DNA of 64,000 bases from Edaphobacter flagellatus (lineage in GTDB: Bacteria; Acidobacteriota; Terriglobia; Terriglobales; Acidobacteriaceae). Below are positions 10,890 to 40,923 of the stretch, one piece after another. Both the position numbers and the translations under genes were made by a program. Location: assembly GCF_025264665.1 (NCBI RefSeq), contig NZ_CP073697.1, positions 496,001 through 560,000 on the forward strand, read 5' to 3'. The notes under the pieces were generated by a model that was given only the letters and a program-made list of their open reading frames with translations, was not told the origin of the DNA and searched no databases. Every line of letters starts with the position of its first letter. Position 1 is the first letter of the stretch.

Positions 10890-11840
10890 ATGGCACATAG
10901 CGCACCGGTCATCCCTCAATCCAACATCCCACTTAGCGTGGCTTCTCTTCCAACGGACGCTGCTATCCGTTTCGAGACGCCTTCTTTTGCTGAAATCTTT
11001 AATGTTGAGCCAGTGGCAACATCCCATAACCTGAGCACTCTCAATATATTTTCTCAAGATGCGTTACGGGCACTTGCGGAAAAGTATCAGGCCAATCCTC
11101 AGGATGCTTTTGTAGCTTCGAGCGCGCCGTCAGCCAATGCAGATTTCAATTCCGTTCCCCATGGTCAACATGCCCCACATGTAGCAATGACTCTGCTGGA
11201 TGAGCAGCCCTATCGCGTTCTTCTGAAACGTCCTGAAAAATACGATGCCGACTTCCGTGAATTGATTCATACGATTCTGCAGTGCATCTCCGATGCGAGA
11301 GGCGGGTTCGGACGTGAGAAAGTTGTGCGACTTGAATCCTCTGTCTTCATCACTTCAGCAAAATCGACAACCCCCATTCACTTTGATCCTGAGATCGGCT
11401 TTTTTTGTCAGATTGCCGGTGAAAAGATTTATCACGTGTATCCTCCAGCCAATGTTACGGAACCTGAACTCGAGCCGTTTTATATCAAAAGCTCGGTTGA
11501 GATTGGCAAGGTCGATGTAAACCGACGCGATCCTGCCCGCGAACATGTCTTTCACCTTTCGGCAGGAAAAGGCTTACATCAGCCTCAGAATGCACCACAT
11601 TGGGTAGAGACCTGCTCGTCGCAGTCGATCTCGTATTCCGTAGTGCTGGAAACGGATGCAACTCGATCCTTAGGACGGACGAGGGCGTTCAATCACTACG
11701 TTCGTATGGCTGGGCTGGCGCCGTCGACTCCAGGTGAGCATCCAGCCGCAGACGCACTGAAAGCAAACGCCATGAATGCCATTCTCCCCATGAGAAAACT
11801 AGCTGGGAAGGTTGTGCGGGGGGTACGGGGTCAACATTGA
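10890..11840 (+). CDS. Cupin/JmjC-like Fe(II)- and 2-oxoglutarate-type oxygenase
   Basis: A 316-residue protein. Its centre resembles the cupin_8/JmjC fold: TTPIHFDPE gives an HxD iron-binding pair, GEKIYHVYPPAN resembles the following strand with a possible 2-oxoglutarate-binding Lys, and QNAPHWVE supplies a plausible distal His. Such enzymes hydroxylate amino-acid residues, free amino acids or peptidyl intermediates. It is the first gene before the NRPS genes on the same strand, 360 bases upstream. A tailoring role, for example hydroxylation of Thr or the diamino acid, is inferred, not shown. TAGGAG about eight bases before ATG 10890 supports the start. A structural cupin without oxygenase activity is the alternative. 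Confidence 0.65.
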   Translation: MAHSAPVIPQSNIPLSVASLPTDAAIRFETPSFAEIFNVEPVATSHNLSTLNIFSQDALRALAEKYQANPQDAFVASSAPSANADFNSVPHGQHAPHVAMTLLDEQPYRVLLKRPEKYDADFRELIHTILQCISDARGGFGREKVVRLESSVFITSAKSTTPIHFDPEIGFFCQIAGEKIYHVYPPANVTEPELEPFYIKSSVEIGKVDVNRRDPAREHVFHLSAGKGLHQPQNAPHWVETCSSQSISYSVVLETDATRSLGRTRAFNHYVRMAGLAPSTPGEHPAADALKANAMNAILPMRKLAGKVVRGVRGQH

Positions 11841-12200: not shown

Positions 12201-14225
12201 TTGTCATGTATCCGTATGACAACATGGATGAAAGACCCTAGCAGAGTACCTATGGCATTACAAACCTCCAATCTCACCGACCCGCTCGTGGCAGGAGAAC
12301 TGAACGACTTCTCCAGAGGGGAAACCTCTGGCAATTCTCTGATATCGCTATTTGAGATTGCTGCAAGAAAGCACAAAGATCGCAACGCCATTGCCTATCA
12401 AGCCGATCAGATCACATATGGCGAATTAAACCGGGCTGCAAACCGGATGGCACGACTTCTTCGCAACCAGTCACTGCATCCTGGGCAGATCGTTGCTATT
12501 TATCTCGATCGCTCAATCGAAATGCTGGTTGCCATGCTGGGTGTTCTAAAAGCGGGTGGGGCTTATCTTCCTATCGACCCGAATTACCCATCTGCTCGTG
12601 TCGTTCAAACGCTCGAAGACGCTCGCCCCGTTCTAGTAATCACCAATCAGAAGTTAGCTGCCCAGCTTGGAGAAGTTCCGGGGCAGCTCCTCTTATTGAA
12701 TGAGCGTCCAGACACAACCAGCGAAGACGAGGCCAATCCTCCTTTGCAGGCGCATGCAGATGACTTGGCGTATGCCATGTACACCTCCGGCTCAACCGGC
12801 AAGCCCAAAGGGGTACTTGTTACTCATCGCAATGTCGTTCGCCTGCTCACGCAAACCGAGCCCTGGTTTCATTTCGACCAGGATGACATCTGGACGATGT
12901 TTCATTCCTTCGCCTTTGATTTTTCGGTCTGGGAGATTTGGGGACCACTGACAACAGGCGGAAAGCTTGTGATCGTTCCGTTTGTAACAAGCCGGTCACC
13001 GGAGGATTTTTACGCACTTCTCTCGGAACAAAAAGTAACGGTACTCAATCAAACACCATCCGCATTCTCGCTCCTCAATCAGGTAGAGGAGTCGGGCAAG
13101 AGATTACCTCTCGCTCTACGGCTGGTGATCTTTGGTGGAGAAGCACTCCAGTATCGATCCTTACGCAGTTGGTTTAATCGTCATGGAGATGAGATGCCCC
13201 AACTCGTCAACATGTACGGCATTACGGAGACCACGGTCCATGTAACCTATCGCATCGTACGGAAGGTCGATGCCGAAGACGAACAGGACAGTCTCATTGG
13301 CGTGCCGATTCCCGATCTTCAGATTCACCTTCTCGGCTCTGATCTGCTCCCCGTAGCCGAAGGAGAGATTGGAGAGATATGCATTGGTGGCGGTGGCGTC
13401 GCGCGAGGATATCTTAATCGCCCTGAACTGACAGCGGAGCGTTTTGTACCTGATCCATCAGGTGTCCCTGGAGCTACACTCTATCGCTCGGGAGATCTTG
13501 CTCGACGGCGTGCGGATGGGGAGCTTGTTTATCTCGGACGTGGCGATAGCCAGGTCAAAATCAACGGATTCCGGATTGAACTTGGAGAGGTCGAGGCTGC
13601 AATCGCCGACTATCCCGGAGTTCAGCAGGTGTGCGTCGCCGCTCATGCCAACGACGACGGGCAACAACGACTCGCGGCATATTTCGTCATGTCAGATGAG
13701 AGCCGACCCACTCCTGGCGAGATCAGCCGTTTTCTGTCTCAACGCCTGCCCCCGCAGATGCTGCCAGCCTTTTATACACAGATTGAGGCTATCCCTTTAA
13801 CCGGCAACGGCAAGGTAGATCGCGCAATGCTTCCAAAGCCTGCCTCCGGTTCAAACACCGCATCGGATTCGACAGCACCTTCCATCGTCTATGAATCCCA
13901 TACACAAGAGCTGGTTGCAGAGGTGTGGCGAGCGGTTCTGAATGCATCTCAAGTCGGCCTGGACGATAACTTCTTCGACATCGGCGGGACATCGGTGCTT
14001 CTTGTCTCGGTGCGGACGCAACTTCAGCAACGGCTCAACCGGGCAATTCCAGTGACTTGGATGTTCGAGTTCACGACGGTTCGCTCCATCGCGACACAAC
14101 TTAGCGAAGCCCAGGCAGGCACTCCATCACCATCCACCGCTCCTTTGAACGCGGCGCAGGAACAAGCGCGCAAACAGAGAGAGGCTTTTGCAAAAATGCG
14201 CGCGGCAAGAGGAACGTCAAGATGA
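12201..14225 (+). CDS. NRPS initiation module A(Thr)-PCP
   Basis: A free-standing adenylation plus carrier protein with no C domain. Numbered from 12201: A3 YTSGSTGKPKG near 194, A4 FDFSVWE near 240, A5 NMYGITETT, A8 QVKINGFRIELGE, A10 GNGKVDR; carrier DNFFDIGGTS with phosphopantetheine Ser near 598. The ten specificity residues read DFWNIGMVHK, the well-known threonine code. It should activate L-Thr and load its own carrier, feeding the KS of the next protein. Its stop overlaps the next start (ATGA), so translation is coupled. The frame opens at TTG 12201; ATG 12216, 12228 or 12252 are also possible starts and no ribosome-binding site decides. Confidence 0.93.
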   Translation: MSCIRMTTWMKDPSRVPMALQTSNLTDPLVAGELNDFSRGETSGNSLISLFEIAARKHKDRNAIAYQADQITYGELNRAANRMARLLRNQSLHPGQIVAIYLDRSIEMLVAMLGVLKAGGAYLPIDPNYPSARVVQTLEDARPVLVITNQKLAAQLGEVPGQLLLLNERPDTTSEDEANPPLQAHADDLAYAMYTSGSTGKPKGVLVTHRNVVRLLTQTEPWFHFDQDDIWTMFHSFAFDFSVWEIWGPLTTGGKLVIVPFVTSRSPEDFYALLSEQKVTVLNQTPSAFSLLNQVEESGKRLPLALRLVIFGGEALQYRSLRSWFNRHGDEMPQLVNMYGITETTVHVTYRIVRKVDAEDEQDSLIGVPIPDLQIHLLGSDLLPVAEGEIGEICIGGGGVARGYLNRPELTAERFVPDPSGVPGATLYRSGDLARRRADGELVYLGRGDSQVKINGFRIELGEVEAAIADYPGVQQVCVAAHANDDGQQRLAAYFVMSDESRPTPGEISRFLSQRLPPQMLPAFYTQIEAIPLTGNGKVDRAMLPKPASGSNTASDSTAPSIVYESHTQELVAEVWRAVLNASQVGLDDNFFDIGGTSVLLVSVRTQLQQRLNRAIPVTWMFEFTTVRSIATQLSEAQAGTPSPSTAPLNAAQEQARKQREAFAKMRAARGTSR

Positions 14226-17200
14226 CTTCGTTTGAAGAGAACATATACGACGAAGTATCTTCGGGCTCTGGCCTCGAGGGGATAGCCATTGTTGGCATGT
14301 CAGGCCGGTTTCCTGGCGCTTCCAGCGTCCAGGAGTTCTGGCGCAACCAGCTCGCTGGCATAGAAGCAATTTCCCAATTCAGCCTTGAGGAGTTGGAACT
14401 CTCAGGAGATAAAGCCGCAGCACACGAACCTAACTATGTTCGGGCGCGATCCATTCTGAAAGATATTGAGATGTTTGATGCCGAGTTCTTCGGCATCCTT
14501 CCCAAGGAAGCTCTGCTCATGGATCCACAGCACCGGCTCTTCCTCGAATGTTGCTGGGAAGCACTGGAAGATGCTGCCTATAACCCTTTCGACTATGTTG
14601 GGTCGATCGGTATTGTTGCGGGGTCAAGTTACGGAAGCTACTTTCTGTCGCAGCTCTGCAAGCAACCGGGATTTGCGCAAAATTTTCTTGAGAACTACCA
14701 GATCGGCAACTACTCCAGCATGATGGGGAATCAGCCGGAGTTTCTGCCGACACGCGTCTCTTACAAGCTCAACCTCAGAGGCCCCAGCTACGCAATTCAA
14801 ACCGCATGCTCCACGTCTTTGCTTGCTGTATGCCAGGCATGCCAGAGTCTGCTGACTTACCAAAGCGACATGATGCTTGCAGGCGGAGTCTCCATCACGC
14901 TGCCACAGAAGCGCGGCTACATCTATCAGGAAGGTGGAATGGGCTCCGCTGATGGACATTGCAGACCGTTCGATAAAGATGCTCAGGGTACCGTCTTCGG
15001 CAGCGGCATCGGCGTTGTCTTGCTCAAGCGCCTGGAAGATGCTGTAGCTGACGGCGATCATGTTTATGCTGTCATTCGTGGATTTGCATCCAACAACGAC
15101 GGCGCAACCAAGATCGGCTATACAGCCCCAAGCATTGACGGACAAGCAAGCGTCATCACCATGGCGCAGCAGTCTGCGGGGATCGACCCCAGAACGATCG
15201 AATATATCGAAGCCCACGGCACGGCAACCCCGCTCGGCGATCCTATTGAGCTTGCCGCACTCACAAAGGCTTTTCGTACAAGCACCAATGACAACGGCTT
15301 CTGCACGATAGGAACAGCTAAAGCCAATGTCGGACATCTGGATATAGCTTCAGGTATCACCGGGCTGATCCACGCAACGCATGTGGTCAAATACGGCCAG
15401 TTTCCTCCAACGCTGAACTTTAAACAGCCGACCGACAAGTTCGATTTCGCATCCAGTCCATTTAAAGTCACAGCAACCGCAGATACATGGAAGACCAGCA
15501 GCCATCCACGTCGCGCCGGAGTAAGTGCCTTTGGCGTCGGTGGAACAAATGCACACGTCATCCTTGAAGAAACTCCGCCTCCTAATTCCACGTCACCATC
15601 GCGGCCGGTGCAATTGCTTCTTCTCTCTGCCCGGTCGAAGGAAGCTTTAGACGCCGCAACACGAAATCTTGCGGAATACTTCAAAGCCACCCCTGAAGCT
15701 CACCTCGCAGATGTTGCTTACACGCTTCAAGTTGGCAGAAAAGCATTTGACTATCGCAGGACTGTCGCAGCAGACTCAACAGCCTCAGCCATCTCTGCGC
15801 TCGAATCCAGTCTTACGACTGGAGGCAACTACAGCAAGAGGAAGTCCTCCCCTCTTCGCATCAGTTTCATGTTCCCCGGACAGGGAGCTCAGCACGTGAA
15901 TATGGCACGTGAGGTTTACAAGACGGAGCCAGCCTTCCGTCAGGCTTTCGACCAATGTGCTTCCCTGCTGCATGCTGAAATCGGTGTCGACCTGCGCGAA
16001 ACGTTGTTTCAAGACGCAGCTGGATCAGGGTTCGATACGACGCAGACTTACTTTGCTCAACCTGCAATCTTCGCAGTTGAATACTCGCTGGCTCAGCTTT
16101 GGATGTCGTGGGGCGTTGAACCGCAAGCCATGATCGGGCACAGTATCGGTGAATTCGTCGCCGCCTGTCTGGCAGGAGTCTTCTCGCTCGAAGATGCTCT
16201 TCATCTTGTCGCAATACGTGGGCGCCTCATGCAAGAGCTGCCTAAAGGCGACATGCTGAGTGTCAGAACAAGTGAGGCCGAGATCACGCCATTGCTTGGG
16301 GACAGCCTGAGCATCGCAGCGATCAACGCACCACTGCTTTGTGTTGCTTCCGGGCCTGGCGAAGCTATCGCCAGATTAGAAGATGAGCTGACGAAGCGTG
16401 GGGTGATGCATCGTAAGTTGTACACATCACATGCCTTCCACTCTTCCATGATGGACCCCATTCTGGCATCATTTCGGCAAGAGGTGGATAAAGTGCGCCT
16501 CTCCAGTCCGACGGTTCCGTACATATCATGTGTGACCGGTAACTGGATTACGGCTAAGGAGGCAACCGATCCCGCCTACTGGACTCGTCATGTGAGAGAA
16601 AGCGTTCGCTTCTCTCAAGGCGTTTCCTTACTGATGCAGGAAGATTTTGCTCTATTAGAGGTGGGCCCAGGAAGCACTCTTGCCACGCTGGCCAGGCAAC
16701 ATAACGCTCTAGCCAAAGAGAAGGTGATCCTCTCTTCTTTGAGCGATGGCAACCCCGAGCATCGCGAAGATTTTGTTCTACAGCAATCACTAGGAACGCT
16801 TTGGGCCAATGGAACGACCATAAGCTGGGAGAAGCTTCATGCAGAGGAAAAACGCCTGCGTATTTCCCTCCCAACCTATCCGTTTGAACGGAGACGCTTC
16901 TGGTTTAGCGACTCCCAGGCAATCGTCGATGAAGGATTTACTACAACAACGGGAGAGAACCCGGTCGGGCCAGGTGAAAGCGTACCAGCCCTGATTTCGA
17001 AGGAGATCGTATTCATGAGTGAGACCACTCCCCAAGGCGTGAGTATTCCGCGGAAAGACTATCTGCGCGGTCTGATCGCCAATATCTTTGAGGAGCTTTC
17101 TGGCCTCACCATCGCCGACAGCGAACAAAATGCCTCATTTCTTGAGCTTGGATTCGACTCCCTATTTCTGACTCAGGTATCTCAGGGCCTGCAGAGCAAG

Positions 17201-20200
17201 TTTGGCATTAAGATCACGTTCCGCCAGCTTATGGGCGATCAATCGACATTGCTGGCGCTATCGGACTATATTGATCAACAACTTCCGCAGGGTGTGTTTG
17301 AAAGCCCCGTATCCGGAGAAGCTCAGGTGGGAAATGCAACGCCCGGCTCCGCAGGCGGAAACGCAGCTTCCGCTGCTGCACCCCAACCGGTCCAACCGGC
17401 AGCGCCTCAGTATGGCTCCGGTACAGCACCTGCCAACTCGCTTGAACAATTGATGCGCGACCAGTTGCAGGCAATGAATCAGCTCTTTGCCCAACAGATC
17501 TCTGTCCTGCAAGCCACAAGCAATGCACCGCAGGTGGCCACTGCCCCTACAGTTTCTGCTCCAGTCGCAGCACCAATCAGGACTACAGCAGCAACGGATA
17601 CACCGAAAGATTCGGCTGGAGTTGAACTGAAAGGCTATACACCTTTCAAGCCTCTACAGAAAAACGTCTCTGGAGAGCTGACACGGCGGCAAATTGAGCA
17701 CATCAAGAAACTGACTGAGTTTTATACCAGCCGTACAGCGACCTCGAAACATAAAACGCAGGAAAGTCGTAAGTATCTGGCCGACCCTCGTGTTGTTGCC
17801 GGATTCCGTGTCCAGTGGAAAGAGGTGATCTACCCGATCATCACCAAACGCTCAAAAGGCTCTCATCTCTGGGATCTGGATGGCAATGAGTACGTCGATA
17901 TCCTGAACGGTTTTGGCCCCATCATGTTGGGACACCGTCCTGATTTCGTCGAAGAGGCCATCGCAAAACAGCTGCACGAAGGCTTTGAGATTGGACCGCA
18001 GACAATTCTTGCAGGTGAAGTCGCCAAAGCTCTGTGTGAGATGACAGGCAACGAGCGCGCCACCTTCTGCAATACAGGATCAGAAGCGGTGATGGCTGCA
18101 ATGCGCTTGGCCCGCACTCTCTCAGGCAAGAACAAGGTGGTCTTCTTTGCCGGCGACTATCACGGCATGTTTGACGAGGTGCTGGTCAAAGGATTTAAGC
18201 GCGCGGGAGTTCCTCAGTCCGCTCCCATTGCGCCAGGAATTCCCCGTGAATCCGTCTCCAACATGATCGTGCTCGACTACGGCACAGATGAATCCCTGGA
18301 GTGGATCCGCATGCACATCCATGAGCTTGCTGCTGTACTCGTCGAGCCTGTGCAGAGCCGCCACCCCAACTTACAACCCGTCGCGTTTCTACGTGAGCTA
18401 CGCAAGATTACAGAAGAAGCCGATGTATGCCTGATCTTCGATGAGGTTGTGACAGGATTCCGCTCACACCCCGGAGGATGCCAGGCACTCTTCAATATTC
18501 GCGCCGACCTTGCAACCTACGGCAAGGTGATCGCTGGCGGCATGCCGATGGGTATCCTTGCGGGCAAAGCGCGCTACATGGATGCTCTGGACGGGGGCAT
18601 GTGGCAGTATGGCGACGACTCCTTCCCTGAGACTGGCGTAACATTCTTTGCCGGCACCTTTGTCCGTCATCCCTTGGCGATGGCTGCATGCGCCGCCGTG
18701 TTGAAATATCTCAAAGAGCAAGGTCCCGAACTGCAACAACGCCTGACGCAACGAACGAGCGATCTGGTAGCTCGCCTGAATGGTTTGCTTGCAGAAAACA
18801 AACTTCCCACCAAGATCGAGACCTTCGCCAGCTTCTTCTATTTCAGCCTGCCCAGCGATTTCCGCTTCGGCAGCATCTTCTACACGCATCTGCGCTCAAA
18901 GGGGATTTATTTGCTGGAAGGCTTCCCCTGCTTCCTAACCACTGCGCACAGTGATGAAGATCTGGAAAAGGTTTACCGCGCTTTCAAAGAAACGATCGCC
19001 GAAATGCAGGCGGGCGAACTTCTTCCTCTGCCCACAGGATCGACCTCTGAGCGAGTCGCAGCGGAAACGTTCGAAACAACCGGGAGCGCCACAAGCGCTC
19101 CGATCACGGAATCGCAGATGGAGATTCTGCTTTCCGCCGAACTGTCTTCTGAGGCAAATTGCAGCTTCAATGAATCCTTTACGCTGCGCCTGCGCGGCGA
19201 CCTCAACCAGCAGGCGCTGGAAGATTCGTTAACGGACCTCTTGACGCGGCATCAAGCTCTTCGTGCGACATTCGATCAAAATGCCGGCAAACAGTACTTC
19301 ACAGCTCCAGCCTCCGTACACCTGCCAGTCGTTGATCTTTCCAGCCTCACATCGGAACAGCAACAAGACCACCTGAGCATTCTTATCGAAGAAGATGCCA
19401 AGCAGGCCTTCGACCTAAAGCTTGGCCCCTTGGTGCGGATGCAACTGCTACGCTTCGGCGTGCAGGACCACGCTCTCCTCTTTAGCGCACATCATGTTGT
19501 CTGCGATGGATGGAGCATTAACGTTCTTCTTGACGAACTTTCGAAGATCTATAGTGCGCGTGTTACCGGGAGTGTCCCTGCTCTTGATCCAGTCATGTCG
19601 TTCAGTGAATATGCACTCTCGCAGGAGAAGCACTTCGCCGGAATCGAAGGCGCTGCGGTGGAGTCTTACTGGGTCAAAAAATTTGAGATTCTTCCTCCCC
19701 TACTCGATCTCCCGCTGGATCATCCACATCCAGCGATGAAGAGTTTTGAAGGAGCGACCTATAGCCGGAAGATCGACCTTCAAACATTGAAGGATATTAA
19801 GAAGGCGGGAGCGCAGCAGAAGTGCACTCTCTTCGTCACGTTGCTTAGTGCCTTCTCCGCATTGCTATCGCGCCTCTCCGGACAAGACGATATCGTCATT
19901 GGGATCCCAGCTGCTGGTCAGTCTCTTATCGAAGACAAGACGCTGGTTGGGCATTGCGTCAACTTCGTTCCCATGCGAACTCTTCCAGCAGAGGGCCTAT
20001 CGACAGCGCAGTTCCTGGATCAAGTTCGCAAAACGGTCTTCGATGCCTACGACCACCAGAACTACACCTTCGGACGCCTCGTCCGTAAGCTTTCCATTCC
20101 GAGAAACGCCAGCAGGCTCCCTCTTCTTGAAGTGCAGTTCAACCTCGAGAAGATCGGGGGAGCTTTAAACTTCAGCAACCTGCAATCTGAGGTCACCCCA

Positions 20201-22315
20201 AATCCCAAGAGCTTCGTCAACTTTGACCTCTTCGTCAATGCTGTAGAGAGCTCCGACGGATTGACTCTTCATGTTGACTACAACACAAACCTCATCAACG
20301 GTGAAACCGTTGCCCGCTGGATGGACTGCTATGAGGTTCTGCTGAAGGGCCTTGCGCAAGACGCTACTCAGCCGCTTGCTCGCCTTCCACTCCTGACCTC
20401 GCAGGAACGAGATCTTGCTCTATTTGCCTTCAATCAGACGGAAGCTTCTTTCCCTCAAGATCTCTGCGTCCACCAGGTGTTTGAACACCAGGTAGCCAAA
20501 AGCCCAAATGCGCCGGCACTTTTATTTGAAGACCAACTGCTGAGCTACGCTCAGCTGAATGAACGAGCGAATCGCCTTGCTCGTTATCTACTGGCTCACG
20601 GAGTCAAAGCAGGGGATGTCGTCGGTGTCTATATGGAGCGCTCCGTCGCTATGATTGTCTCCCTGCTAGCGACATGGAAGGCCGGCGCTACCTATGTTCC
20701 TCTCGATCCAACCTTCCCTGCAGAGCGCCTCCGTATGGTCTTCGAGGACATCTCCAACCCAACCGTTCTCACACAGGCGGCTATTGCCTCTGATCTGCCC
20801 TCGGGTAATGCTCGCCCTCTGCGTGTCGACGAACTTTGGCCTGAGATCGAACTTGAGGACGGCAGCAATCTGGACATTTCTTATGATCCTAACCGGATTG
20901 CCTATGTGATCTATACCTCAGGATCAACTGGCAGGCCAAAGGGAGTAGAGGTCACTCAGTCGAATGTTGTCAATCTACTGAATTCGATAGCCAAAACACC
21001 GGGCTTGACCGCCAAAGACGTTCTGGTCGCTGTAACCACAATCTCCTTCGATATTGCGGCTCTTGAGATCTTTCTCCCGCTCACCACAGGAGCAGAGCTT
21101 GTTCTTGCCAGCCGCGCCGTTGCCAGCGATGGCAATCAATTGATGCGGTTGCTGCGAGACTCTCACGCAACCATCATGCAAGCTACGCCAATTACCTTCC
21201 GCCTGCTTCTTGCGGCTGGGTGGAAAGGCAATCCGCACATTACAGCCTGGTGCGGTGGCGAAGCAATGCCCCGCGATCTCGCCAATCAGCTTCTTGATTG
21301 CGGTATTTCGCTCTGGAACATGTATGGGCCGACAGAGACAACGATCTGGTCAGCCACGAATCGCATCATCAGCCGCACAGGGTCTGTTCCCGTTGGCCTT
21401 CCGATCGACAATACGCAGTTCTACGTGCTCGATCCTCTGCAGCAGCTTGTTCCGATGGGCGTCTCCGGCGAGTTGTACATCGGCGGAGTTGGCGTGGCGA
21501 AGGGCTACTATAAACGCCCCGACCTAACATCTGCGCGATTCATTGCAGACCCGTTCAGCACGCGGACCGGCGCACGACTCTACCGCACAGGCGACAACGT
21601 TCGCCGTCTCGACAATGGCGAACTGGAATTCCTCGGCAGAGCTGACGGGCAGATTAAGCTCCGCGGGTTCCGTATTGAGCTGGGAGAGATTGAGAGCGTC
21701 CTCTCTACGCATCCATCTCTCGATCAGGCCGTAGTGCTTTTGCGCGAAGACATTCCCGGAGATAAGCGCCTTGTGGCCTACATGACGTCGCACAATGGCG
21801 CTACACCTGATAGCGGCGATCTGCGCACGTATCTGCTTGGCAAGCTTCCTGACTACATGGTTCCGGCAGCATTTATCTCTCTGCCTTCGTTTCCTATGAC
21901 GGCGAACGGCAAGATTGATCGTAAAGCGCTGCCGGCACCCAGTTGGACATCGCTCTCACAAAACACGAAGTATGTGGCTCCCCGTACCGCGCAAGAAGAG
22001 ACATTCGCCAAAATATGGGCGGAAGTTCTGCATCTGGAACGAGTAGGTGTCGAGGACAATATCTTTGAGTTGGGAGGCGACTCGCTGCATGTCTTCCAGA
22101 TTGCAGCGCGCGCAAATCAATCGGGGATCGAGGCTCGTCCGCGTCAGATTCTGCAATACAGGAATATCGCAGCAATTCTTGCCGATATTGAGAAGAACTT
22201 TTCGGCCCCGAAACAAGCGCCACTGGTCCCTGTATCGCGAGCAAAATATAGAATGACGCAACCACAACGCACGGAGCAGCCTGAGCCGGTCGATCCCGGA
22301 GGGCGCAGAGATTAA
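14222..22315 (+). CDS. Hybrid PKS-NRPS: KS-AT-ACP-aminotransferase-C-A-PCP
   Basis: A 2697-residue megasynthase. KS has Cys196, His332 and His372 in family spacing. AT has GHSIGE (Ser641) and HAFHS (737-741), a malonyl-CoA signature. ACP has GFDSL (Ser980), followed by a Pro/Ala/Gln linker. A class III aminotransferase (about 1150-1590) has PLP Lys1435 in TYGKVIAGG. The C domain has intact HHVVCDG (His1757-1758). In the A domain (about 2080-2580) the specificity residues read DILQWGMIWK, closest to the glycine code DILQLGLIWK. PCP has LGGDS (Ser2621). The order resembles mycosubtilin/iturin-type AMT modules. The KS should receive Thr, the AT adds malonate, the AMT turns the beta-ketone into an amine, and the C domain joins it to the next residue. 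There is no KR, so the ketone is left for the AMT. Confidence 0.95.
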   Translation: MTSFEENIYDEVSSGSGLEGIAIVGMSGRFPGASSVQEFWRNQLAGIEAISQFSLEELELSGDKAAAHEPNYVRARSILKDIEMFDAEFFGILPKEALLMDPQHRLFLECCWEALEDAAYNPFDYVGSIGIVAGSSYGSYFLSQLCKQPGFAQNFLENYQIGNYSSMMGNQPEFLPTRVSYKLNLRGPSYAIQTACSTSLLAVCQACQSLLTYQSDMMLAGGVSITLPQKRGYIYQEGGMGSADGHCRPFDKDAQGTVFGSGIGVVLLKRLEDAVADGDHVYAVIRGFASNNDGATKIGYTAPSIDGQASVITMAQQSAGIDPRTIEYIEAHGTATPLGDPIELAALTKAFRTSTNDNGFCTIGTAKANVGHLDIASGITGLIHATHVVKYGQFPPTLNFKQPTDKFDFASSPFKVTATADTWKTSSHPRRAGVSAFGVGGTNAHVILEETPPPNSTSPSRPVQLLLLSARSKEALDAATRNLAEYFKATPEAHLADVAYTLQVGRKAFDYRRTVAADSTASAISALESSLTTGGNYSKRKSSPLRISFMFPGQGAQHVNMAREVYKTEPAFRQAFDQCASLLHAEIGVDLRETLFQDAAGSGFDTTQTYFAQPAIFAVEYSLAQLWMSWGVEPQAMIGHSIGEFVAACLAGVFSLEDALHLVAIRGRLMQELPKGDMLSVRTSEAEITPLLGDSLSIAAINAPLLCVASGPGEAIARLEDELTKRGVMHRKLYTSHAFHSSMMDPILASFRQEVDKVRLSSPTVPYISCVTGNWITAKEATDPAYWTRHVRESVRFSQGVSLLMQEDFALLEVGPGSTLATLARQHNALAKEKVILSSLSDGNPEHREDFVLQQSLGTLWANGTTISWEKLHAEEKRLRISLPTYPFERRRFWFSDSQAIVDEGFTTTTGENPVGPGESVPALISKEIVFMSETTPQGVSIPRKDYLRGLIANIFEELSGLTIADSEQNASFLELGFDSLFLTQVSQGLQSKFGIKITFRQLMGDQSTLLALSDYIDQQLPQGVFESPVSGEAQVGNATPGSAGGNAASAAAPQPVQPAAPQYGSGTAPANSLEQLMRDQLQAMNQLFAQQISVLQATSNAPQVATAPTVSAPVAAPIRTTAATDTPKDSAGVELKGYTPFKPLQKNVSGELTRRQIEHIKKLTEFYTSRTATSKHKTQESRKYLADPRVVAGFRVQWKEVIYPIITKRSKGSHLWDLDGNEYVDILNGFGPIMLGHRPDFVEEAIAKQLHEGFEIGPQTILAGEVAKALCEMTGNERATFCNTGSEAVMAAMRLARTLSGKNKVVFFAGDYHGMFDEVLVKGFKRAGVPQSAPIAPGIPRESVSNMIVLDYGTDESLEWIRMHIHELAAVLVEPVQSRHPNLQPVAFLRELRKITEEADVCLIFDEVVTGFRSHPGGCQALFNIRADLATYGKVIAGGMPMGILAGKARYMDALDGGMWQYGDDSFPETGVTFFAGTFVRHPLAMAACAAVLKYLKEQGPELQQRLTQRTSDLVARLNGLLAENKLPTKIETFASFFYFSLPSDFRFGSIFYTHLRSKGIYLLEGFPCFLTTAHSDEDLEKVYRAFKETIAEMQAGELLPLPTGSTSERVAAETFETTGSATSAPITESQMEILLSAELSSEANCSFNESFTLRLRGDLNQQALEDSLTDLLTRHQALRATFDQNAGKQYFTAPASVHLPVVDLSSLTSEQQQDHLSILIEEDAKQAFDLKLGPLVRMQLLRFGVQDHALLFSAHHVVCDGWSINVLLDELSKIYSARVTGSVPALDPVMSFSEYALSQEKHFAGIEGAAVESYWVKKFEILPPLLDLPLDHPHPAMKSFEGATYSRKIDLQTLKDIKKAGAQQKCTLFVTLLSAFSALLSRLSGQDDIVIGIPAAGQSLIEDKTLVGHCVNFVPMRTLPAEGLSTAQFLDQVRKTVFDAYDHQNYTFGRLVRKLSIPRNASRLPLLEVQFNLEKIGGALNFSNLQSEVTPNPKSFVNFDLFVNAVESSDGLTLHVDYNTNLINGETVARWMDCYEVLLKGLAQDATQPLARLPLLTSQERDLALFAFNQTEASFPQDLCVHQVFEHQVAKSPNAPALLFEDQLLSYAQLNERANRLARYLLAHGVKAGDVVGVYMERSVAMIVSLLATWKAGATYVPLDPTFPAERLRMVFEDISNPTVLTQAAIASDLPSGNARPLRVDELWPEIELEDGSNLDISYDPNRIAYVIYTSGSTGRPKGVEVTQSNVVNLLNSIAKTPGLTAKDVLVAVTTISFDIAALEIFLPLTTGAELVLASRAVASDGNQLMRLLRDSHATIMQATPITFRLLLAAGWKGNPHITAWCGGEAMPRDLANQLLDCGISLWNMYGPTETTIWSATNRIISRTGSVPVGLPIDNTQFYVLDPLQQLVPMGVSGELYIGGVGVAKGYYKRPDLTSARFIADPFSTRTGARLYRTGDNVRRLDNGELEFLGRADGQIKLRGFRIELGEIESVLSTHPSLDQAVVLLREDIPGDKRLVAYMTSHNGATPDSGDLRTYLLGKLPDYMVPAAFISLPSFPMTANGKIDRKALPAPSWTSLSQNTKYVAPRTAQEETFAKIWAEVLHLERVGVEDNIFELGGDSLHVFQIAARANQSGIEARPRQILQYRNIAAILADIEKNFSAPKQAPLVPVSRAKYRMTQPQRTEQPEPVDPGGRRD

Positions 22316-25300
22316 TGAGTTCCGAAACCAGTGTCCGAGAACCAGCATACGATCCTGTTCCTCCAGGAGCTGATTATTTTGCATTCCCTTTGACTCCAGG
22401 GCAGAAGGCGATGCTGCCGAAAGATTTAGACAGCACATACGATCCGCGATTCAACGGCGCCTTTCGCATGAACCTCGATGGGCCGATTGATCTCACCCTG
22501 TTGGAACGCTCGCTTTTGCAGATTATGCAGCGGCACGAAGCATTGCGCACAAGCTTTCGTGTAGTCGACTCCGAGATTCAGCAAATCGTTCTTCCGGACC
22601 CGGTCTTTTCTTTGGAAGCTGTGGACCTGAGAGCACTCCCCCCAGATAAGCAGGATGCCGAGGTTGACGCAATCTGTTTGCATGAGGCACAGACGGGTTT
22701 CGATCTAACAAAGGCTCCTCCTCTCCGAGCCAAGCTTCTCCATCTGAATGATTCAAGGCATATGCTCGTCCTCACGATCCATCAGATTATCTGTGACGGG
22801 TGGTCGATTGGCGTTCTTATGGAAGAGATGTCGAAGGATTACACCGCACTCGCTCGCCAGGAAACAGCTCCCCTACCCCCTTTAAACTTCCAGTTTGGAG
22901 ACTATGTAGTCTGGCAATTAGAGACGATTGCCCAACCTGAAGCGCAAACACAACTCAGCTGCTGGCGTGAAAGACTTGCCCGCTGTCCGCAGTTAGAGGT
23001 TGCATTCGACCACGATCCCGCCGAGCGCTCGATTCAAAGCGGCATCGTCTCGCAGCTTCTTCCCCGTAGCCTCACAGAAGAGCTACGCAGTCTGGCGCAG
23101 TCTCAAAACACAACCTTTTTTGTTGTTACCATGTCTGCCTGCATGGCTCTTCTGTATCGCTATACAGGAAAAACGGACCTCGCGCTAAGAACACCTCTGG
23201 CTGGACGCACACGGGTTGAGTTTGAACCTCTCATCGGCCAGTTCGTCAATCAAGTTATCCTTCGTTCCGAGTTCTCAGATATGTTTACGTTTGCCGATCT
23301 CGTAGCACAGGTACGTGAACGTGTCTGGGAGAGCCTCGCCAACCAGGACATTCCCTACGAAACCGTTATCCACGCGATGGAAGGCGAAGCAGTCAACCCC
23401 AACGACCTATATCGGGTTAACTTCGTCTGTCAGCGCGAATACGGTCGTGGCGGCCCATTTCTGTTCGAGCTAAATGGCACACGCCTGACGACGCTGCCTT
23501 CAAAGTCTCAGGGTGCACTGTACGATCTCAATTTTTTCCTCGTTGAGCGCGAAGCGGGTTGGCGTCTCTCCCTTGAGTATCGAACTGGCCTTTATACACA
23601 GGAAACAGCAGACAGCCTTCTCCAGCACTTTCAGGAGTTGATGAAAGAGGTCATCCGCAATCCGCTACAGCGTCTCTCTGCAATCGCCTTAACTCCAACC
23701 CAAGCATTAGAGAAACGCATCCAAAACCTCCCCTCCCCCGCTACTGATATGGAGGAGACTACGAAAAACCCTCAGGAAGAGATACAAGCCATTCCGGCAA
23801 GCTTTGCTCAGGAACGCTTTTGGACATTATCTGAAGTAGATCCAGCCAATCCAGCCTTCCATATGCCCGTAAGGTTGCGACTTACTGGAAAGCTCTCCGT
23901 CCCGTTACTAGAAAGAAGTTTCCGCGTGCTGATCGACCGGCACGAGATTCTGAGAACCACATTTTCGGAGATCGACGGCACTCTGATGCAGGTCATCCAT
24001 AGCGCATCTCCGTTTTCGCTTCAGCAGATCTCAGTGGATGCCATACCTGAACATAATAGAGAGGTTACCGCCGCTTCCAGCATTCAAGAATTACTGGAAG
24101 AACCCTTCAACCTCTCGACGCTGCCGCTCTTCCGCGCAGCCTTATATCGCCTTGCCCCCGAAGAACACATTCTCGTACTCAGTATTCACCACTCCATCGC
24201 CGATGCCTGGTCGATCCAGGTGTTTCAGCGGGAACTCTGGACAGCATACGAAGGCTTTCGCCAAAACAACGAATTTTCTTTCGAGCCGCTCACCCTCCAA
24301 TATGGAGATTTTTCTATCTGGCAAAGAGAAGGTGTTGAATCTGAGGCAACCCAGGAACATCTCTCTTTCTGGCTAAAATCTCTTTCGGGCGAGCTTCCCG
24401 TTCTCAACTTCCCAACTGACTACGCTCCTGCGCAGCAGGATGCTCCCAAGAGCTCTCTTGAAACGCTTCTTCTTTCCGATGAGCTCTCCAAAGCACTCAA
24501 GCAATTCGCTCAGGCGAACGACACGACACTCTATGTCGTCACACTGGCAAGCTTCGCGTTGATGCTGTCACAGGGGGCGAATGCGCACGATCTCATCATT
24601 GGCTCTCCGGTCGTCAATCGCAGGGTTGAAACGGAACCCCTGATGGGTCCATTCGCCGGCCCAGTCGCGCTTCGTCTTGGCCTGAACGGCGATCCTACCC
24701 TTCGTGAATTTGTTCTTGCCGCGCGAAACACAACGGTTGAAGCTCTGGGGCATACCGAGCTGCCGTTTGAGCTGTTGCTCGATAAATTGCAGGTTAGGCC
24801 AGTAGCAGGCAGAAGTCCGCTCTTCCAGTTCTACTTCTTCTGCCAGACTGCGTTTTTGCAGGCTCGCGAACTACAGGACCTCACCATCGCCCCTATGCCG
24901 ACGACCAGCATCGGCACCCCTTTTGAGATACAACTCGCCATCATCGAGAGAAAGGAAGGCGTACGCGCCGAACTGGAATACAACGCCAACCTCTTTCATT
25001 CCGCCACGATGAAAGAATGGCTGCAGTATTACCAGAGCATCCTCACCGCTCTCACAGGCAATCCCGATAGCAGAGTAAGTGAGCTTCCAGTTCCGCCACA
25101 CAGGGCTAAAGATACTGTTGCCGCTTCCAGTCATATTGCGGAACAGTCCTCGCTGCAAAAGGGCCCAGAAGCATCTCTCGTTGAAACATCCTCCTTTGCC
25201 AACGAACCTTTGACTTCTGAGCTGAAGCAAATGTGGCAAGCGGCTCTTGGCAACGACAAGATCGGACTGCACGATAATTTTTTTGCCCTGGGTGGCCGCT

Positions 25301-26211
25301 CTCTGGTGGCGGCTCGCCTTATCGCCAAGATCAATAAGCAGTACTCCCTGAAACTCGGGCTGGCGACATTTTTCAACTGCCCAACCATTGCAGAGCTTGC
25401 CGCACTGATCCACGGACAATTAACTCCGCAGGAACCATCGTCGATTGTTGCCGTCCAACCTGAAGGCACCAGTGCACCTCTGTTCATGGTTCACGGTGTC
25501 GGCGGCAACGTGTTGAACTTTTATGACCTCGCGAAGAGCCTTGGCTTTAATCAACCGGTATATGGCGTCGAGGCTCAGGCGCTCCAATCGTCGGCACCTC
25601 CACTTACCTCTCTCGAGGAATTAGCTGCCTACTATGTGAAAGAGGTTCGGAAGATTCAACCGGAAGGCCCCTATCACTTTCTTGGTTATTCCTACGGTGG
25701 ATTCGTAGCCTTCGAGATGGCGCGCCAGCTACAGATGGCAAATCAGAAAGTGGAGCTCGTAGGAATGCTCGATACCCCTGTCTGGCGACATCCTGTTCAC
25801 GAAGAACACCACACATTTCGTAAGGCAGTTCGTCAGATCATGGCGGTTTGGACACCGTTCTTCCATCGTTTGCGTCCCTGTACTCCGATGGAGATCTTCG
25901 ACGGCATCAAAAGTACGATACTTAGGACTTTTTACACCTTCGCCACCGCGAATGGCATGGTCATTCCTCCTCGCCTTAGAAGCGTTTATCACATCAATTC
26001 ATTCGCTGCAGTGAACTATGTGCCAAAAAGCTACGACGGCATTGTCACGATGTTCCGTGCATCACGGGAGAAAGGCCCCAGGGATCTGGGCTGGGGAAAA
26101 TACTCTACTCAGCCGGTACGTGTGTTTGAGATCCCTGGAGCTCACCTGCAGGTTTTATCGAACGAGAATCTGCCTCGTGTCGTCAAAAGCCTTCGTCAAT
26201 GCTTATCTTAA
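22315..26211 (+). CDS. NRPS termination protein: C-C-PCP-thioesterase, no A domain
   Basis: A 1298-residue protein with two consecutive C domains, a carrier and a type I thioesterase. C1 (about 20-460) carries HQIICDG at 156-162: the second, catalytic His of HHxxxDG is Gln. C2 (about 490-930) carries HHSIADA at 625-631, keeping both His but with Ala for Gly. The carrier has LGGRS (Ser996). The TE has GYSYGG (Ser1126), Asp1153 and His1277, a complete triad. No adenylation domain lies between or after the C domains, so the carrier must be loaded in trans or used only for transfer to the TE. Start and previous stop overlap (TAATG), showing translational coupling. The TE would release the product by hydrolysis or cyclisation. 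Confidence 0.92.
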   Translation: MSSETSVREPAYDPVPPGADYFAFPLTPGQKAMLPKDLDSTYDPRFNGAFRMNLDGPIDLTLLERSLLQIMQRHEALRTSFRVVDSEIQQIVLPDPVFSLEAVDLRALPPDKQDAEVDAICLHEAQTGFDLTKAPPLRAKLLHLNDSRHMLVLTIHQIICDGWSIGVLMEEMSKDYTALARQETAPLPPLNFQFGDYVVWQLETIAQPEAQTQLSCWRERLARCPQLEVAFDHDPAERSIQSGIVSQLLPRSLTEELRSLAQSQNTTFFVVTMSACMALLYRYTGKTDLALRTPLAGRTRVEFEPLIGQFVNQVILRSEFSDMFTFADLVAQVRERVWESLANQDIPYETVIHAMEGEAVNPNDLYRVNFVCQREYGRGGPFLFELNGTRLTTLPSKSQGALYDLNFFLVEREAGWRLSLEYRTGLYTQETADSLLQHFQELMKEVIRNPLQRLSAIALTPTQALEKRIQNLPSPATDMEETTKNPQEEIQAIPASFAQERFWTLSEVDPANPAFHMPVRLRLTGKLSVPLLERSFRVLIDRHEILRTTFSEIDGTLMQVIHSASPFSLQQISVDAIPEHNREVTAASSIQELLEEPFNLSTLPLFRAALYRLAPEEHILVLSIHHSIADAWSIQVFQRELWTAYEGFRQNNEFSFEPLTLQYGDFSIWQREGVESEATQEHLSFWLKSLSGELPVLNFPTDYAPAQQDAPKSSLETLLLSDELSKALKQFAQANDTTLYVVTLASFALMLSQGANAHDLIIGSPVVNRRVETEPLMGPFAGPVALRLGLNGDPTLREFVLAARNTTVEALGHTELPFELLLDKLQVRPVAGRSPLFQFYFFCQTAFLQARELQDLTIAPMPTTSIGTPFEIQLAIIERKEGVRAELEYNANLFHSATMKEWLQYYQSILTALTGNPDSRVSELPVPPHRAKDTVAASSHIAEQSSLQKGPEASLVETSSFANEPLTSELKQMWQAALGNDKIGLHDNFFALGGRSLVAARLIAKINKQYSLKLGLATFFNCPTIAELAALIHGQLTPQEPSSIVAVQPEGTSAPLFMVHGVGGNVLNFYDLAKSLGFNQPVYGVEAQALQSSAPPLTSLEELAAYYVKEVRKIQPEGPYHFLGYSYGGFVAFEMARQLQMANQKVELVGMLDTPVWRHPVHEEHHTFRKAVRQIMAVWTPFFHRLRPCTPMEIFDGIKSTILRTFYTFATANGMVIPPRLRSVYHINSFAAVNYVPKSYDGIVTMFRASREKGPRDLGWGKYSTQPVRVFEIPGAHLQVLSNENLPRVVKSLRQCLS

Positions 26212-26235: not shown

Positions 26236-27627
26236 TTACTTAGCGGGCCACTGCTCAAAGTGAACCTCTTTGAAAGGAGAGGTATTGCCGGAATCGAGCA
26301 ACGATGAACCTTTGCCATAAAGCGTTTTATTAAAGAAAGCAAGGGCGTAATCCCTGACAATCATCTCCATCCTCGCCGGCTTTATCGGTCCGGTATGCGT
26401 GATACGTCGAAAAGGCGAGACCAAGGGCTGATCGGTAAAGTCTCCATGCAGAGCGCCGTCAATGACAAGCCGATAGCCGCCAAAGCGCTCAAGACTGCTC
26501 AAGACATTCTTTTCGTCGCGTATGTCGAGCTCAGCATTCACATGCTCTGCAGGAACCGGCGAGTTTACAAGCAGATGTTGCGGATCAACGCTATCCTCAT
26601 ACATCCACATCAATGACTTGCCTTCTGACCGGTCACGCACTCCATCAAACGTCCACCCATCCATATTGATGGCCGACCGGACGCGAGGATCAACACTGCA
26701 GATTCGCTCCGCTGCCGATCCACCGAAGGAGTGGCCGAGAGCTCCGACCATCTCTGTATTCAAATGGCCATGCCAGGGACTCTGCGGATCGAGATTGGCA
26801 GCCTGAAAAGTGTTTAGGACAAATATCTGGTCAGCCGTCCATTTCTGCAGTTCCATATTCCATAACGCTTCGGTTTTGTCAGCGGAAACTATTCCAAGAT
26901 CCAGAATCGGCGATCCCAGGATTCCGTTAATCACGCGGCCGTCGGGGAGCGCGACGCGGTTTGAGTTGTACGGATGGTCGGTAGCGATAACGACATATCC
27001 ATGGCTGGCCAAATCTTCTGCGATAAACGTGTCACTGATGCGTGTCGCACCCCACCCGTGACCAAACAGGATCACTGGAAATGGACCGCCCTTCGCAGAG
27101 ACAACCGCGTCTTCGCGGGAGTTCGTCCATAAAACGCTTTGATAGGAATTCTTTAATCTGCTTTCGCGCCAGCGACGGTAAGGAGCCAGGTGATTACTGG
27201 AGCTCTCCGCTGGATACCATACTTGAACAATCAGCTCCCGATCGCGCGTACGGTCAGAACCTGCATCTTCTTTACGGCTGTCGTCTCTCAGATAGACGAT
27301 TCGTGTGCCTACTGGATAAGCTCCCGTTGGCTTAGGGAGGGAAAACATCGGTACGGCAAAAGAGAGCGCCGCACCTGCCAGGCACAGCGTGAGGACAAGC
27401 AGGGAGACGGTGATTGTCCTGCGAATCGCCAGACCTACTGCCAGAACCACAACCGCGATATAGACGGGCAGCATCTGCCAGTGACCGCCTTCCCGCCCAA
27501 GATGAATTATTGCAAGCAGCAGGCAAAGAAAGACGAAGAACGATTTCACCAGCCTTGAGAGGCTCGTCAATTCGACCAATGCAGCGATAACCAGGAAAAT
27601 GGTCAATGCAACTTCAAATGGCCGCAT
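26236..27627 (-). CDS. Membrane-anchored alpha/beta hydrolase, PAF-acetylhydrolase-like
   Basis: A 463-residue protein with about four N-terminal membrane helices (residues 1-105) and a C-terminal alpha/beta hydrolase domain. The domain has GHGWGATRIS (oxyanion region), nucleophile Ser in GALGHSFGGS, a likely Asp in NMDGWTF and a likely His in GALHGDF. This pattern matches platelet-activating-factor acetylhydrolase/chlorophyllase-like esterases. It converges on the thioesterase end of the NRPS operon with only 24 bases between stops. The substrate is unknown. A role in hydrolysing or detoxifying an ester product is possible but rests only on position. Confidence 0.75.
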   Translation of the reverse strand: MRPFEVALTIFLVIAALVELTSLSRLVKSFFVFLCLLLAIIHLGREGGHWQMLPVYIAVVVLAVGLAIRRTITVSLLVLTLCLAGAALSFAVPMFSLPKPTGAYPVGTRIVYLRDDSRKEDAGSDRTRDRELIVQVWYPAESSSNHLAPYRRWRESRLKNSYQSVLWTNSREDAVVSAKGGPFPVILFGHGWGATRISDTFIAEDLASHGYVVIATDHPYNSNRVALPDGRVINGILGSPILDLGIVSADKTEALWNMELQKWTADQIFVLNTFQAANLDPQSPWHGHLNTEMVGALGHSFGGSAAERICSVDPRVRSAINMDGWTFDGVRDRSEGKSLMWMYEDSVDPQHLLVNSPVPAEHVNAELDIRDEKNVLSSLERFGGYRLVIDGALHGDFTDQPLVSPFRRITHTGPIKPARMEMIVRDYALAFFNKTLYGKGSSLLDSGNTSPFKEVHFEQWPAK

Positions 27628-39888: not shown

Positions 39889-40923
39889 TTAGCGCAGAAG
39901 CGCTCCAATCGTAAACAGATTTACAAGCGGCGAAAGCTTCTCAAAGCTGTAAGCCAATTTATTGAACCCGCTTTCGGGAATATAGATGATGTCACCCGAT
40001 TGCAATGTAAGATCAAGCGGCTTTGGCCCCAGAACATCTTTGTATGAGATGACCTGCGTCTTTCCGGGCGTGGTATCGGTACCGCGATGGATGATCTGAA
40101 TGTCAGGATAGCGTCCTGCCTTCTCTGTCGGCCCACCAGCCATGGCAAGAAGCTGAGGCAGGGTGCTTTTCTTTTCGAGCCGCTGCGTCCCCGGACGCAC
40201 AACCATTCCAAGTACTGAAACGTACTTATCTGGGCCGGGGACAAAGACAACATCGTCGCGCATGAGCCGCATATTGGCCAGAGGGTTTCCCTCTTCAAGA
40301 AGGCTTCGCAGCTGGACCGTAACCATGGAGGCGTTGCCGCGATAGATCATGCATTCTTCGGGCACAGCCATCGGAATGGGCAATGCGCCTGCTGTACCTG
40401 CGGCCGGGGCTCCTGAACTAGCTGCCGCCCCCGAAGCCCCCTGAAGCTGTCCGCCACGCGAGATCACCTCAAGCAGAGTGGGTGTGGTATCGAAGGTCAA
40501 CAGACCGGGATGCTCGACTGCACCAAGCAGAAGGATGTGATTCGACGTGTAGTGATCCACACCTACCGATACCGTAACTCCGGCATAGTAAGAGCTGAGT
40601 GCGTTCTGGATAGCAGTAGCAGCCTCCTCGCGGGTTTTATCTGCCACCATAATGGTGCCCGCGATGGGCAGCGTGATCTTTCCATCGGGTCCAATCGTGT
40701 GCTTGGCGGTCAACTCAGGACGGCCTACGACCTCAACGGTGATCTCATCACCGCGCCCGAGTTGGTAAGGCTGGTCGGCTGGCGCCTCAAAGGACTTCAA
40801 CATCGCCAGAGGATTTTGTTTCAGCTCTGTAGCAGGAGCAGTATTCTGCGCATCACAGACCGGGTGAGCGAGTGAGACACACGCTGTCAGCAGAAACATC
40901 ATATTGGTCAGCTTCATACGCAT
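39889..40923 (-). CDS. Wza-type polysaccharide export protein
   Basis: About 344 residues from ATG 40923, with TTAGGAG nine bases upstream; the frame runs open to 41010. The signal region MFLLTAC contains a possible lipobox Cys, as in Wza. The export domain begins YQLGRGDEITVEVVGRPELT, then IGPDGKITLPIAG, followed by two SLBB-like segments (LLLGAVEHPGLL and VLGMVVRPGTQ) and a C-terminal DIIYIPESG. It forms the outer-membrane channel for EPS export and would pair with the GumC-type protein at 57291. It is first in an operon with the acetyltransferase and GT2 genes. Confidence 0.93.
   Translation of the reverse strand: MRMKLTNMMFLLTACVSLAHPVCDAQNTAPATELKQNPLAMLKSFEAPADQPYQLGRGDEITVEVVGRPELTAKHTIGPDGKITLPIAGTIMVADKTREEAATAIQNALSSYYAGVTVSVGVDHYTSNHILLLGAVEHPGLLTFDTTPTLLEVISRGGQLQGASGAAASSGAPAAGTAGALPIPMAVPEECMIYRGNASMVTVQLRSLLEEGNPLANMRLMRDDVVFVPGPDKYVSVLGMVVRPGTQRLEKKSTLPQLLAMAGGPTEKAGRYPDIQIIHRGTDTTPGKTQVISYKDVLGPKPLDLTLQSGDIIYIPESGFNKLAYSFEKLSPLVNLFTIGALLR

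What the first reader, a model, noticed from the sequence alone, without database searches (positions are those of the whole stretch)
12201..22315. Threonine-primed PKS with aminotransferase: predicted 3,4-diamino-5-hydroxyhexanoyl unit
Seen: A-PCP without a C domain (Thr code DFWNIGMVHK), then KS-AT(malonyl)-ACP-AMT-C with no KR. Known: AMT domains of mycosubtilin/iturin synthases convert beta-keto-ACP to beta-amino-ACP, normally on a fatty chain. Inferred: here the KS would extend Thr, so transamination gives a vicinal diamino acid related to statine, a building block I do not know from an AMT line.
Basis: partly seen in the sequence, partly recalled or inferred. Interest (0 to 1): 0.85.

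Follow-up and report, generated by a model that had tools for sequence, protein, structure and literature searches.

The report
Threonine-primed line predicted to form diamines
A bacterial gene cluster appears to take the amino acid threonine, lengthen it by two carbons and put a second amino group next to the first, a building block not known to us from this kind of enzyme line; relatives with the same layout occur in many other bacteria.

Summary
In detail: domain order, Thr code (DFWNIGMVHK), malonyl-type AT, AMT and no KR. The line goes on with C-A(Gly-like)-PCP and a third gene, C-C-PCP-TE, without an A domain. In other bacteria A-T is fused to this KS. 18 of 19 counted A-T proteins with a separate KS gene share a C-terminal docking-like motif. 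The Thr code stands in all 14 same-genus lines read. 3,4-Diamino-5-hydroxyhexanoyl-Gly is the best-supported intermediate; no chemistry was seen. The domain order is not new: a 2013 survey lists it in Pedobacter heparinus. Nine searches of an open-access library found no vicinal-diamino product of an AMT line. Open: what loads the A-less last module, whether a neighbouring cupin/hydrolase pair feeds it, and why polysaccharide genes lie beside many of these lines.

The parts
10890..11840 (+). Cupin_8/JmjC-like gene, candidate Fe/2-oxoglutarate dioxygenase (HFD motif), putative tailoring hydroxylase
   Evidence: Pfam Cupin_8 5e-8; HFD at residue 164; a cupin gene is seen beside 11 of the 14 same-genus lines, window included, at 25-83% identity to this one
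12201..14225 (+). A-PCP loading protein, Thr code DFWNIGMVHK, no C domain; C-terminal docking-like peptide AAQEQARKQREAFAKMRAARG
   Evidence: A 12345-13832, PCP 13899-14111
14282..15571 (+). KS, aminoacyl side of the KS tree
15860..16705 (+). AT, malonyl-type motif HAFH
   Evidence: motif rule recalled
17069..17281 (+). ACP
17687..19027 (+). AMT, class-III aminotransferase; catalytic Lys1435; Asn1229 and Glu1319 at positions that separate aminoacyl from acyl AMTs
19097..20404 (+). C domain, inferred to join the diamino-acyl unit to the next residue
20468..21931 (+). A domain, Gly-like code
21989..22195 (+). PCP, followed by a PVSRxKYR-type tail at the end of the protein
22315..26211 (+). C-C-PCP-TE without A domain; first C has HQxxxDG in place of HHxxxDG, second C has HHSIADA
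26236..27627 (-). PAF-acetylhydrolase-like hydrolase (GHSFGG in the translation, hydrophobic N-terminus); seen beside the same 11 genus lines as the cupin

Best explanation
A hybrid NRPS-PKS line. The A-PCP protein activates L-Thr and docks to the KS. The KS condenses Thr with malonyl-ACP to 4-amino-5-hydroxy-3-oxohexanoyl-ACP. With no KR present, the AMT transaminates the 3-oxo group, giving 3,4-diamino-5-hydroxyhexanoyl-ACP. The C domain joins this unit to Gly on the next PCP, and the third protein (C-C-PCP-TE) finishes and releases the chain. It belongs to a widespread class of amino-acid-primed AMT lines with various starter codes (Thr, and Val-, Pro- and Asp-like by recalled codes). Shown: domains, motifs, code, phylogeny, relatives. 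Inferred: every chemical step, the last residue and the release.
For: Domains and motifs. KS tree: all 61 rows labelled A-T-, T-only- or NRPS-primed stand apart from a 16-row side (11 acyl-ligase-primed, 2 PKS-primed, 3 other KSs) at 100/100, window on the aminoacyl side; AU test p 2.75e-16 against moving it, the acyl group having been taken from the tree itself. A-T-KS in one ORF in 21 of the lines so read. Docking-like motif on 18 of 19 A-T proteins with a separate KS gene (three further A-T ORFs, L059, L064, L080, cut or run into the KS, were left out), against 1 of 45 T-KS, 0 of 32 T-C and 0 of 43 T-TE linkers and 4 of 37 second-PCP tails. Thr starter code in 14 of 14 same-genus lines while the last module varies. 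L041, L130 and L131 keep A(Thr)-T although their last module has its own Gly-like A. The AMT matches the solved MycA AMT over 449 residues (E 7e-135). One AMT position is Met in 14 of 14 acyl AMTs but Asn in 51 of 59 aminoacyl ones; another is Gly/Ala in 14 of 14 but Glu in 58 of 59. AMT is the best conserved of the domains compared with L021 (88%). Recalled precedent: BioA and GSAM, class-III relatives, act on alpha-amino ketones or pass through a vicinal diamine.
Against: No biochemical data. The last module lacks an A domain, so the Thr A-PCP could serve it. Cupin and PAF-AH-like genes are seen in 11 of 12 same-genus lines with an A-less last module and in 0 of 2 with an A domain there (only a few kb of flank were held), which is what a load-modify-shuttle system would show. 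L041 lacks the docking-like motif. In T-only lines the loading of the starter PCP is unclear: in G066 the only A domain at E<=1e-40 is the one after the AMT. The AMT tree splits less cleanly than the KS tree: L052, L059, L086 and L107 lie outside the main aminoacyl group, L079 with the acyl AMTs. The AMT substitutions follow phylogeny and have not been placed in a structure. The code may also fit N-methylated Thr.
Confidence: 0.74

Rival explanations
1. Load-modify-shuttle only (SyrB1-like, recalled): the Thr A-PCP serves the A-less terminal C-PCP. Threonyl-PCP is oxidised by the cupin enzyme and carried to the last PCP by an acyltransferase; the KS is primed by something else.
For: Last module A-less; Fe/2OG-like cupin and an alpha/beta hydrolase beside the line, seen in 11 of 12 A-less same-genus lines, in 0 of 2 with an A domain, and not seen at L041.
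Against: A(Thr)-T is kept in L041, L130 and L131, whose last module has an A. A-T is fused to the KS in many relatives. The docking-like motif marks A-T proteins next to KS genes. The KS is on the aminoacyl side. The hydrolase has a hydrophobic N-terminus and a GHSFGG motif, unlike SyrC as recalled.
Confidence: 0.1
2. Both roles (overlaps the main explanation): the Thr A-PCP primes the KS and, after cupin modification, also loads the terminal PCP.
For: As for the main explanation, plus the cupin/hydrolase/A-less co-occurrence.
Against: No SyrC-type acyltransferase recognised among the proteins scanned; the lines with a cupin are close kin, so they count few independent events (inference).
Confidence: 0.2
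3. The KS is primed with a fatty or other acyl chain, as in mycosubtilin, giving an ordinary beta-amino acyl unit.
For: The AMT modules with a stated role in the passages seen (mycosubtilin, microcystin, zeamine, chitinimine) act on acyl or polyketide chains (PMC3870968, PMC3547906, PMC13291983).
Against: KS tree and AU test, AMT tree; no acyl ligase among the ten neighbouring proteins scanned.
Confidence: 0.04
4. The 4-amino-3-oxo thioester cyclises to a tetramic-acid-like lactam before transamination, or the AMT is inactive.
For: gamma-Amino thioesters cyclise readily (chemical knowledge).
Against: AMT catalytic residues intact and AMT the most conserved domain compared with L021; downstream C-A-PCP and C-C-PCP-TE are kept.
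Confidence: 0.08

Closest known systems
Mycosubtilin synthase MycA AMT module (PDB 6kfm, 6kfr, 6kfu)
   Same: In-line class-III AMT after a KS and ACP, followed by a C domain; AMT E 7e-135 over 449 residues
   Different: MycA-type lines are primed by an acyl ligase-ACP; their KSs and AMTs fall on the acyl side of the trees; Met and Gly in place of Asn and Glu
A-CP-KS-AT-CP-PLP1 protein C6XWU5 of Pedobacter heparinus and similar entries (PMC3870968 Table 2, section 7 read)
   Same: Same domain order; predicted cluster product Nrp-Mal-Gly-Pk
   Different: A catalogue entry; in the section and passages seen no diamino product is discussed, and the words 'starter' and 'aminoacyl' do not occur in the main text
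Statine-type modules (A-PCP to KS with KR), recalled
   Same: Amino-acid-primed KS and malonyl extension to a gamma-amino acid
   Different: A KR makes a 3-hydroxy group; here the AMT would make a 3-amino group
BioA and glutamate-1-semialdehyde aminomutase (chemistry recalled)
   Same: Class-III aminotransferases that act on alpha-amino ketones or pass through a vicinal diamine; GSAM models match the AMT below their cut-offs
   Different: Free-standing primary-metabolism enzymes, not carrier-bound
SyrB1/SyrB2/SyrC syringomycin shuttle, recalled
   Same: Free Thr A-T, Fe/2OG enzyme, A-less last module
   Different: Here the A-T is coupled to a KS gene with a docking-like motif; no halogenase was identified among the proteins scanned

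Membership tests
KS-AT-ACP-AMT beta-amination module (MycA-like) | Class-III AMT domain with PLP lysine in line after KS/ACP, no KR | tested here: met
KS-AT-ACP-AMT beta-amination module (MycA-like) | Priming by acyl ligase-ACP and an acyl-type KS | tested here: not met
   No acyl ligase among the ten neighbouring proteins scanned; KS on the aminoacyl side, p-AU 2.75e-16
KS-AT-ACP-AMT beta-amination module (MycA-like) | Beta-amino thioester formed | not testable with these tools
   needs protein MS
Amino-acid-primed PKS module (A-PCP to KS) | A-PCP without C domain directly upstream, KS grouping with A-T-primed KSs | tested here: met
Amino-acid-primed PKS module (A-PCP to KS) | Threonyl transfer to the KS | not testable with these tools
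   needs an assay
Statine-type module | KR domain reducing the 3-oxo group | tested here: not met
   no KR in 14222-22315
SyrB1-type trans-loading | A-less terminal module | tested here: met
SyrB1-type trans-loading | A-T present only where a terminal module lacks A | tested here: not met
   L041, L130, L131 keep A(Thr)-T with a full last module
SyrB1-type trans-loading | SyrC-like aminoacyltransferase | tested here: inconclusive
   only a PAF-AH-like hydrolase with hydrophobic N-terminus seen next to the line

The most novel reading that the evidence does not exclude
These lines form a class, spread over several phyla, whose AMT has been retuned (Asn and Glu at the two separating positions) to make beta,gamma-diamino acids from amino-acid starters. 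In many of them the diamino peptide is handled together with a surface polysaccharide: it leaves by a Wzx/Wza route, or the A-less terminal C domain transfers it onto an amino sugar.
Probability: 0.13. Interest if true: 0.85.

Novelty: new variant of a known kind. Interest (0 to 1): 0.63.

Why it matters
In the papers seen, in-line transamination acts on acyl and polyketide chains. If the KS here passes on an aminoacyl unit, one PKS module gives a vicinal diamine, a motif that chemists make with effort and that resembles aminodeoxystatine protease inhibitors (recalled). The starter codes of relatives would give a family of such units. Two AMT positions and a docking-like motif give tests that can be run at once.

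Tried and rejected
Considered and set aside: fatty-acyl priming; a statine-type module (no KR); the Agrobacterium siderophore cluster read among the plasmid hits, whose aminotransferase is a free-standing gene; codon-rate tests against L021, where dS is saturated or high, so only identity is used.

Weak points of the counts. 'Acyl-ligase-primed' was assigned by a low GrsA alignment score or a FAAL-like motif, not by a family model. L092 was first put there; its N-terminal part reads as a piece of an A domain with a methyltransferase-like insert, so it and L079 are left out of the comparison. Counted as labelled, 11 of 12 such KS rows fall on the acyl side. L059 and L064 show only the end of the A domain, cut by contig ends. 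The docking pattern was written after seeing the tails; a first, cruder pattern matched 11 of 24 tails, and shuffled tails match the final one 5.8 times in 19 on average. L128-L137 were not in that count. The polysaccharide profiles were built from loci of this set: outside the family 4 of the 12 positive loci are seeds (L049, L051, L056, L070), leaving 8 of 37; in the family 6 of the 21 are seeds (window, L026, L028, L040, L041, L042), leaving 15 of 28, many of them kin with one shared operon. The AMT lines were drawn with an aminoacyl-type query and capped at 80 loci, so the ratio of aminoacyl to acyl lines is no census. Literature: nine answered topic searches and one for the code in an open-access library that lacks most subscription papers; the rows listed were not all opened. 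Structure prediction was not run, since the tool's description promises no coordinates.

Full report
What is there. Three co-directional genes overlap by 4 bases and 1 base (coordinates): 12201-14225 A-PCP; 14222-22315 KS-AT-ACP-AMT-C-A-PCP; 22315-26211 C-C-PCP-TE. The A code of the first is DFWNIGMVHK, identical to the Thr code of DhbF2 (PMC4169593, passages). The A domain after the AMT reads DILQLAMI-K or, with another template, DILQ-GMISK; relatives such as L026 read DILQLGMIWK, a Gly code in PMC12283262 (passages). Catalytic residues of KS, AT, ACP, AMT and the first C are present. No KR, DH or ER is found in the second protein. A cupin/JmjC-like gene lies upstream and a PAF-acetylhydrolase-like gene downstream on the other strand.

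Relatives in the family. 27 of 200 family genomes, own included, hold the ACP-AMT region. All 26 others were fetched. Upstream of the KS, 10 have an A-T gene (L021, L024-L027, L029, L041-L044), 8 a T domain fused to the KS (L028, L030-L035, L037), 1 a small T gene (L040), 2 NRPS modules with a Thr-like A code (L038, L039), 2 show no primer in the stretch (L022, L023), 2 are cut (L036, L045) and 1 has PKS modules (L046). In the genome of L022 an A-T gene with a Val-like code lies on another contig. The contig of G175, one of the family genomes, has the same number (13 of its record) and length, 81,953 bases, as the named record of L047, 'Acidobacteria bacterium', and both loci show the same line, so the family is probably acidobacterial.

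Relatives in the genus. A phylum search (396 genomes, 24 with a match at E<=1e-100) lists 14 lines in the window's genus. All 14 were read: window, L021, L027, L029 and L128-L137. All have the A-T gene directly before the KS with the Thr code, two with one position unaligned (L129, L136). Their last modules differ: C-C-T-TE in 4, C-T-TE in 8, C-A(Gly-like)-T-TE in 2. So the Thr A-T stays with the KS while the last module changes.

Relatives elsewhere. A scan of one genome for each of 84,980 species with the AMT alignment gave 80 kept loci of more. Many carry A-T-KS-AT in one ORF with the AMT, among them Caballeronia, Xenophilus, Pedobacter, Lysobacter, Spirosoma, Mucilaginibacter, Winogradskyella and Chlorogloea. 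Starter codes are of several kinds (Val-, Pro- and Asp-like by recall).

KS and AMT trees. In a tree of 85 KSs, 16 rows (11 acyl-ligase-primed, 2 PKS-primed, 3 other KSs) stand on one side with support 100/100. All rows labelled separate A-T (22), fused A-T (21), T-only (15) and NRPS (3) stand on the other, with 5 other KSs, 2 lines without visible primer and L092. Moving the window KS to the acyl side costs 103 log units, p-AU 2.75e-16; the 16-row group was taken from the tree, which makes the p-value lenient. The AMT tree shows a like but less clean split: the acyl AMTs group together with L079, L092 and 8 AMTs without visible primer, and L052, L059, L086 and L107 lie outside the main aminoacyl group.

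AMT positions. Comparing 14 acyl AMTs (MycA included) with 59 aminoacyl ones, the residue before the GFG/GYG motif is Met in 14 of 14 and Asn in 51 of 59 (Met 4, Ser 2, Cys 2), and a residue five after the Tyr-His of the YHG motif region is Gly/Ala in 14 of 14 and Glu in 58 of 59. In the window they are Asn1229 and Glu1319. That they line the substrate pocket and touch the gamma-amino group is inference from recalled class-III structures. The nearest solved structure is the MycA AMT.

Docking. 18 of 19 A-T proteins whose KS is a separate gene end in a basic, Gln-rich peptide (window: AAQEQARKQREAFAKMRAARG); the exception is L041. The pattern is seen in 1 of 45 T-KS linkers, 0 of 32 T-C, 0 of 43 T-TE and 4 of 37 second-PCP tails; shuffled A-T tails give 5.8 of 19. 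Another motif, PVSRxKYR, is in 11 of 37 second-PCP tails and in none of the 139 other stretches.

What speaks for a second role of the A-T. The last module has no A domain. Cupin and PAF-AH-like genes lie beside 11 of the 14 genus lines; the 3 without are L129 and the two lines with an A domain in the last module, though only a few kb of flank were held. A Thr that is oxidised on the A-T and shuttled to the last PCP would fit, as in syringomycin (recalled). L041, L130 and L131, with a full last module and still a Thr A-T, show that this cannot be its only role in the family. The first C of the last protein has Gln for the second His of HHxxxDG in the window and L021 but not in L022 or L024; its role is open.

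Known or new. PMC3870968 (section 7 read, passages elsewhere) lists A-CP-KS-AT-CP-PLP1 in Pedobacter heparinus (predicted Nrp-Mal-Gly-Pk), a longer form in Thiorhodococcus and, with an upstream C, one in Salinisphaera; no diamino outcome is discussed in what was seen. No paper listed showed, in title, abstract start or the passages opened (PMC13291983; PMC8776678), a vicinal-diamino unit from an AMT line. The window is thus filed as a new variant of a known kind.

Polysaccharide neighbours. Profiles for Wzx, Wza, Wzc, Wzy, UGD and glycosyltransferases match beside 21 of 34 aminoacyl lines of the family (15 of 28 without seed loci), 12 of 41 elsewhere (8 of 37 without seeds), 0 of 17 acyl-primed lines and 1 of 14 background loci. 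In L026, L041, L130 and L131 a Wzx-like gene stands directly before the A-T gene. A Rhizobium plasmid line has a flippase and a pyruvyl transferase near by. This is a lead, not part of the main claim.

Noticed in passing
window 39889-62697: A second PKS/NRPS set (KS-AT-DH-MT-ER-KR-ACP 49606-57252, free C 48193-49569, C-A-PCP 45278-48118, TE 44448-45251, PPTase 41036-41914) lies inside a polysaccharide locus (Wza-like 39889-41010, Wzc-like 57291-59510, Wzy 59914-61275, Wzx 61303-62697).
   Followed up: partly
L130:15458-16954, L131:3149-4582, L026:15606-17021, L041:14223-15647: Wzx-like flippase gene directly upstream of, and on the same strand as, the Thr A-T gene.
   Followed up: partly
L028, L031-L037, L040 (last gene of each line): Terminal modules hold a weakly scoring A-like region with no readable code between a C and a T domain.
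   Followed up: no
L024:15661-17307, L046:15612-17225: CmlA-type diiron beta-hydroxylase beside lines; in L024 it stands next to a Val-like A-T, so the starter may again become a beta-hydroxy amino acid.
   Followed up: no
L038:126-6386, L039:114-6338: C-A(Thr-like)-T followed by a domain with an epimerisation-like HHxxxDGxSWR motif (rule recalled) and an A-less C-T, upstream of the KS.
   Followed up: no
window 41996-44470 and 62913-63980: The CBM_4_9 protein and the protein at 62913 are 61% identical over 355 residues: a duplicated pair at both ends of the polysaccharide locus.
   Followed up: no
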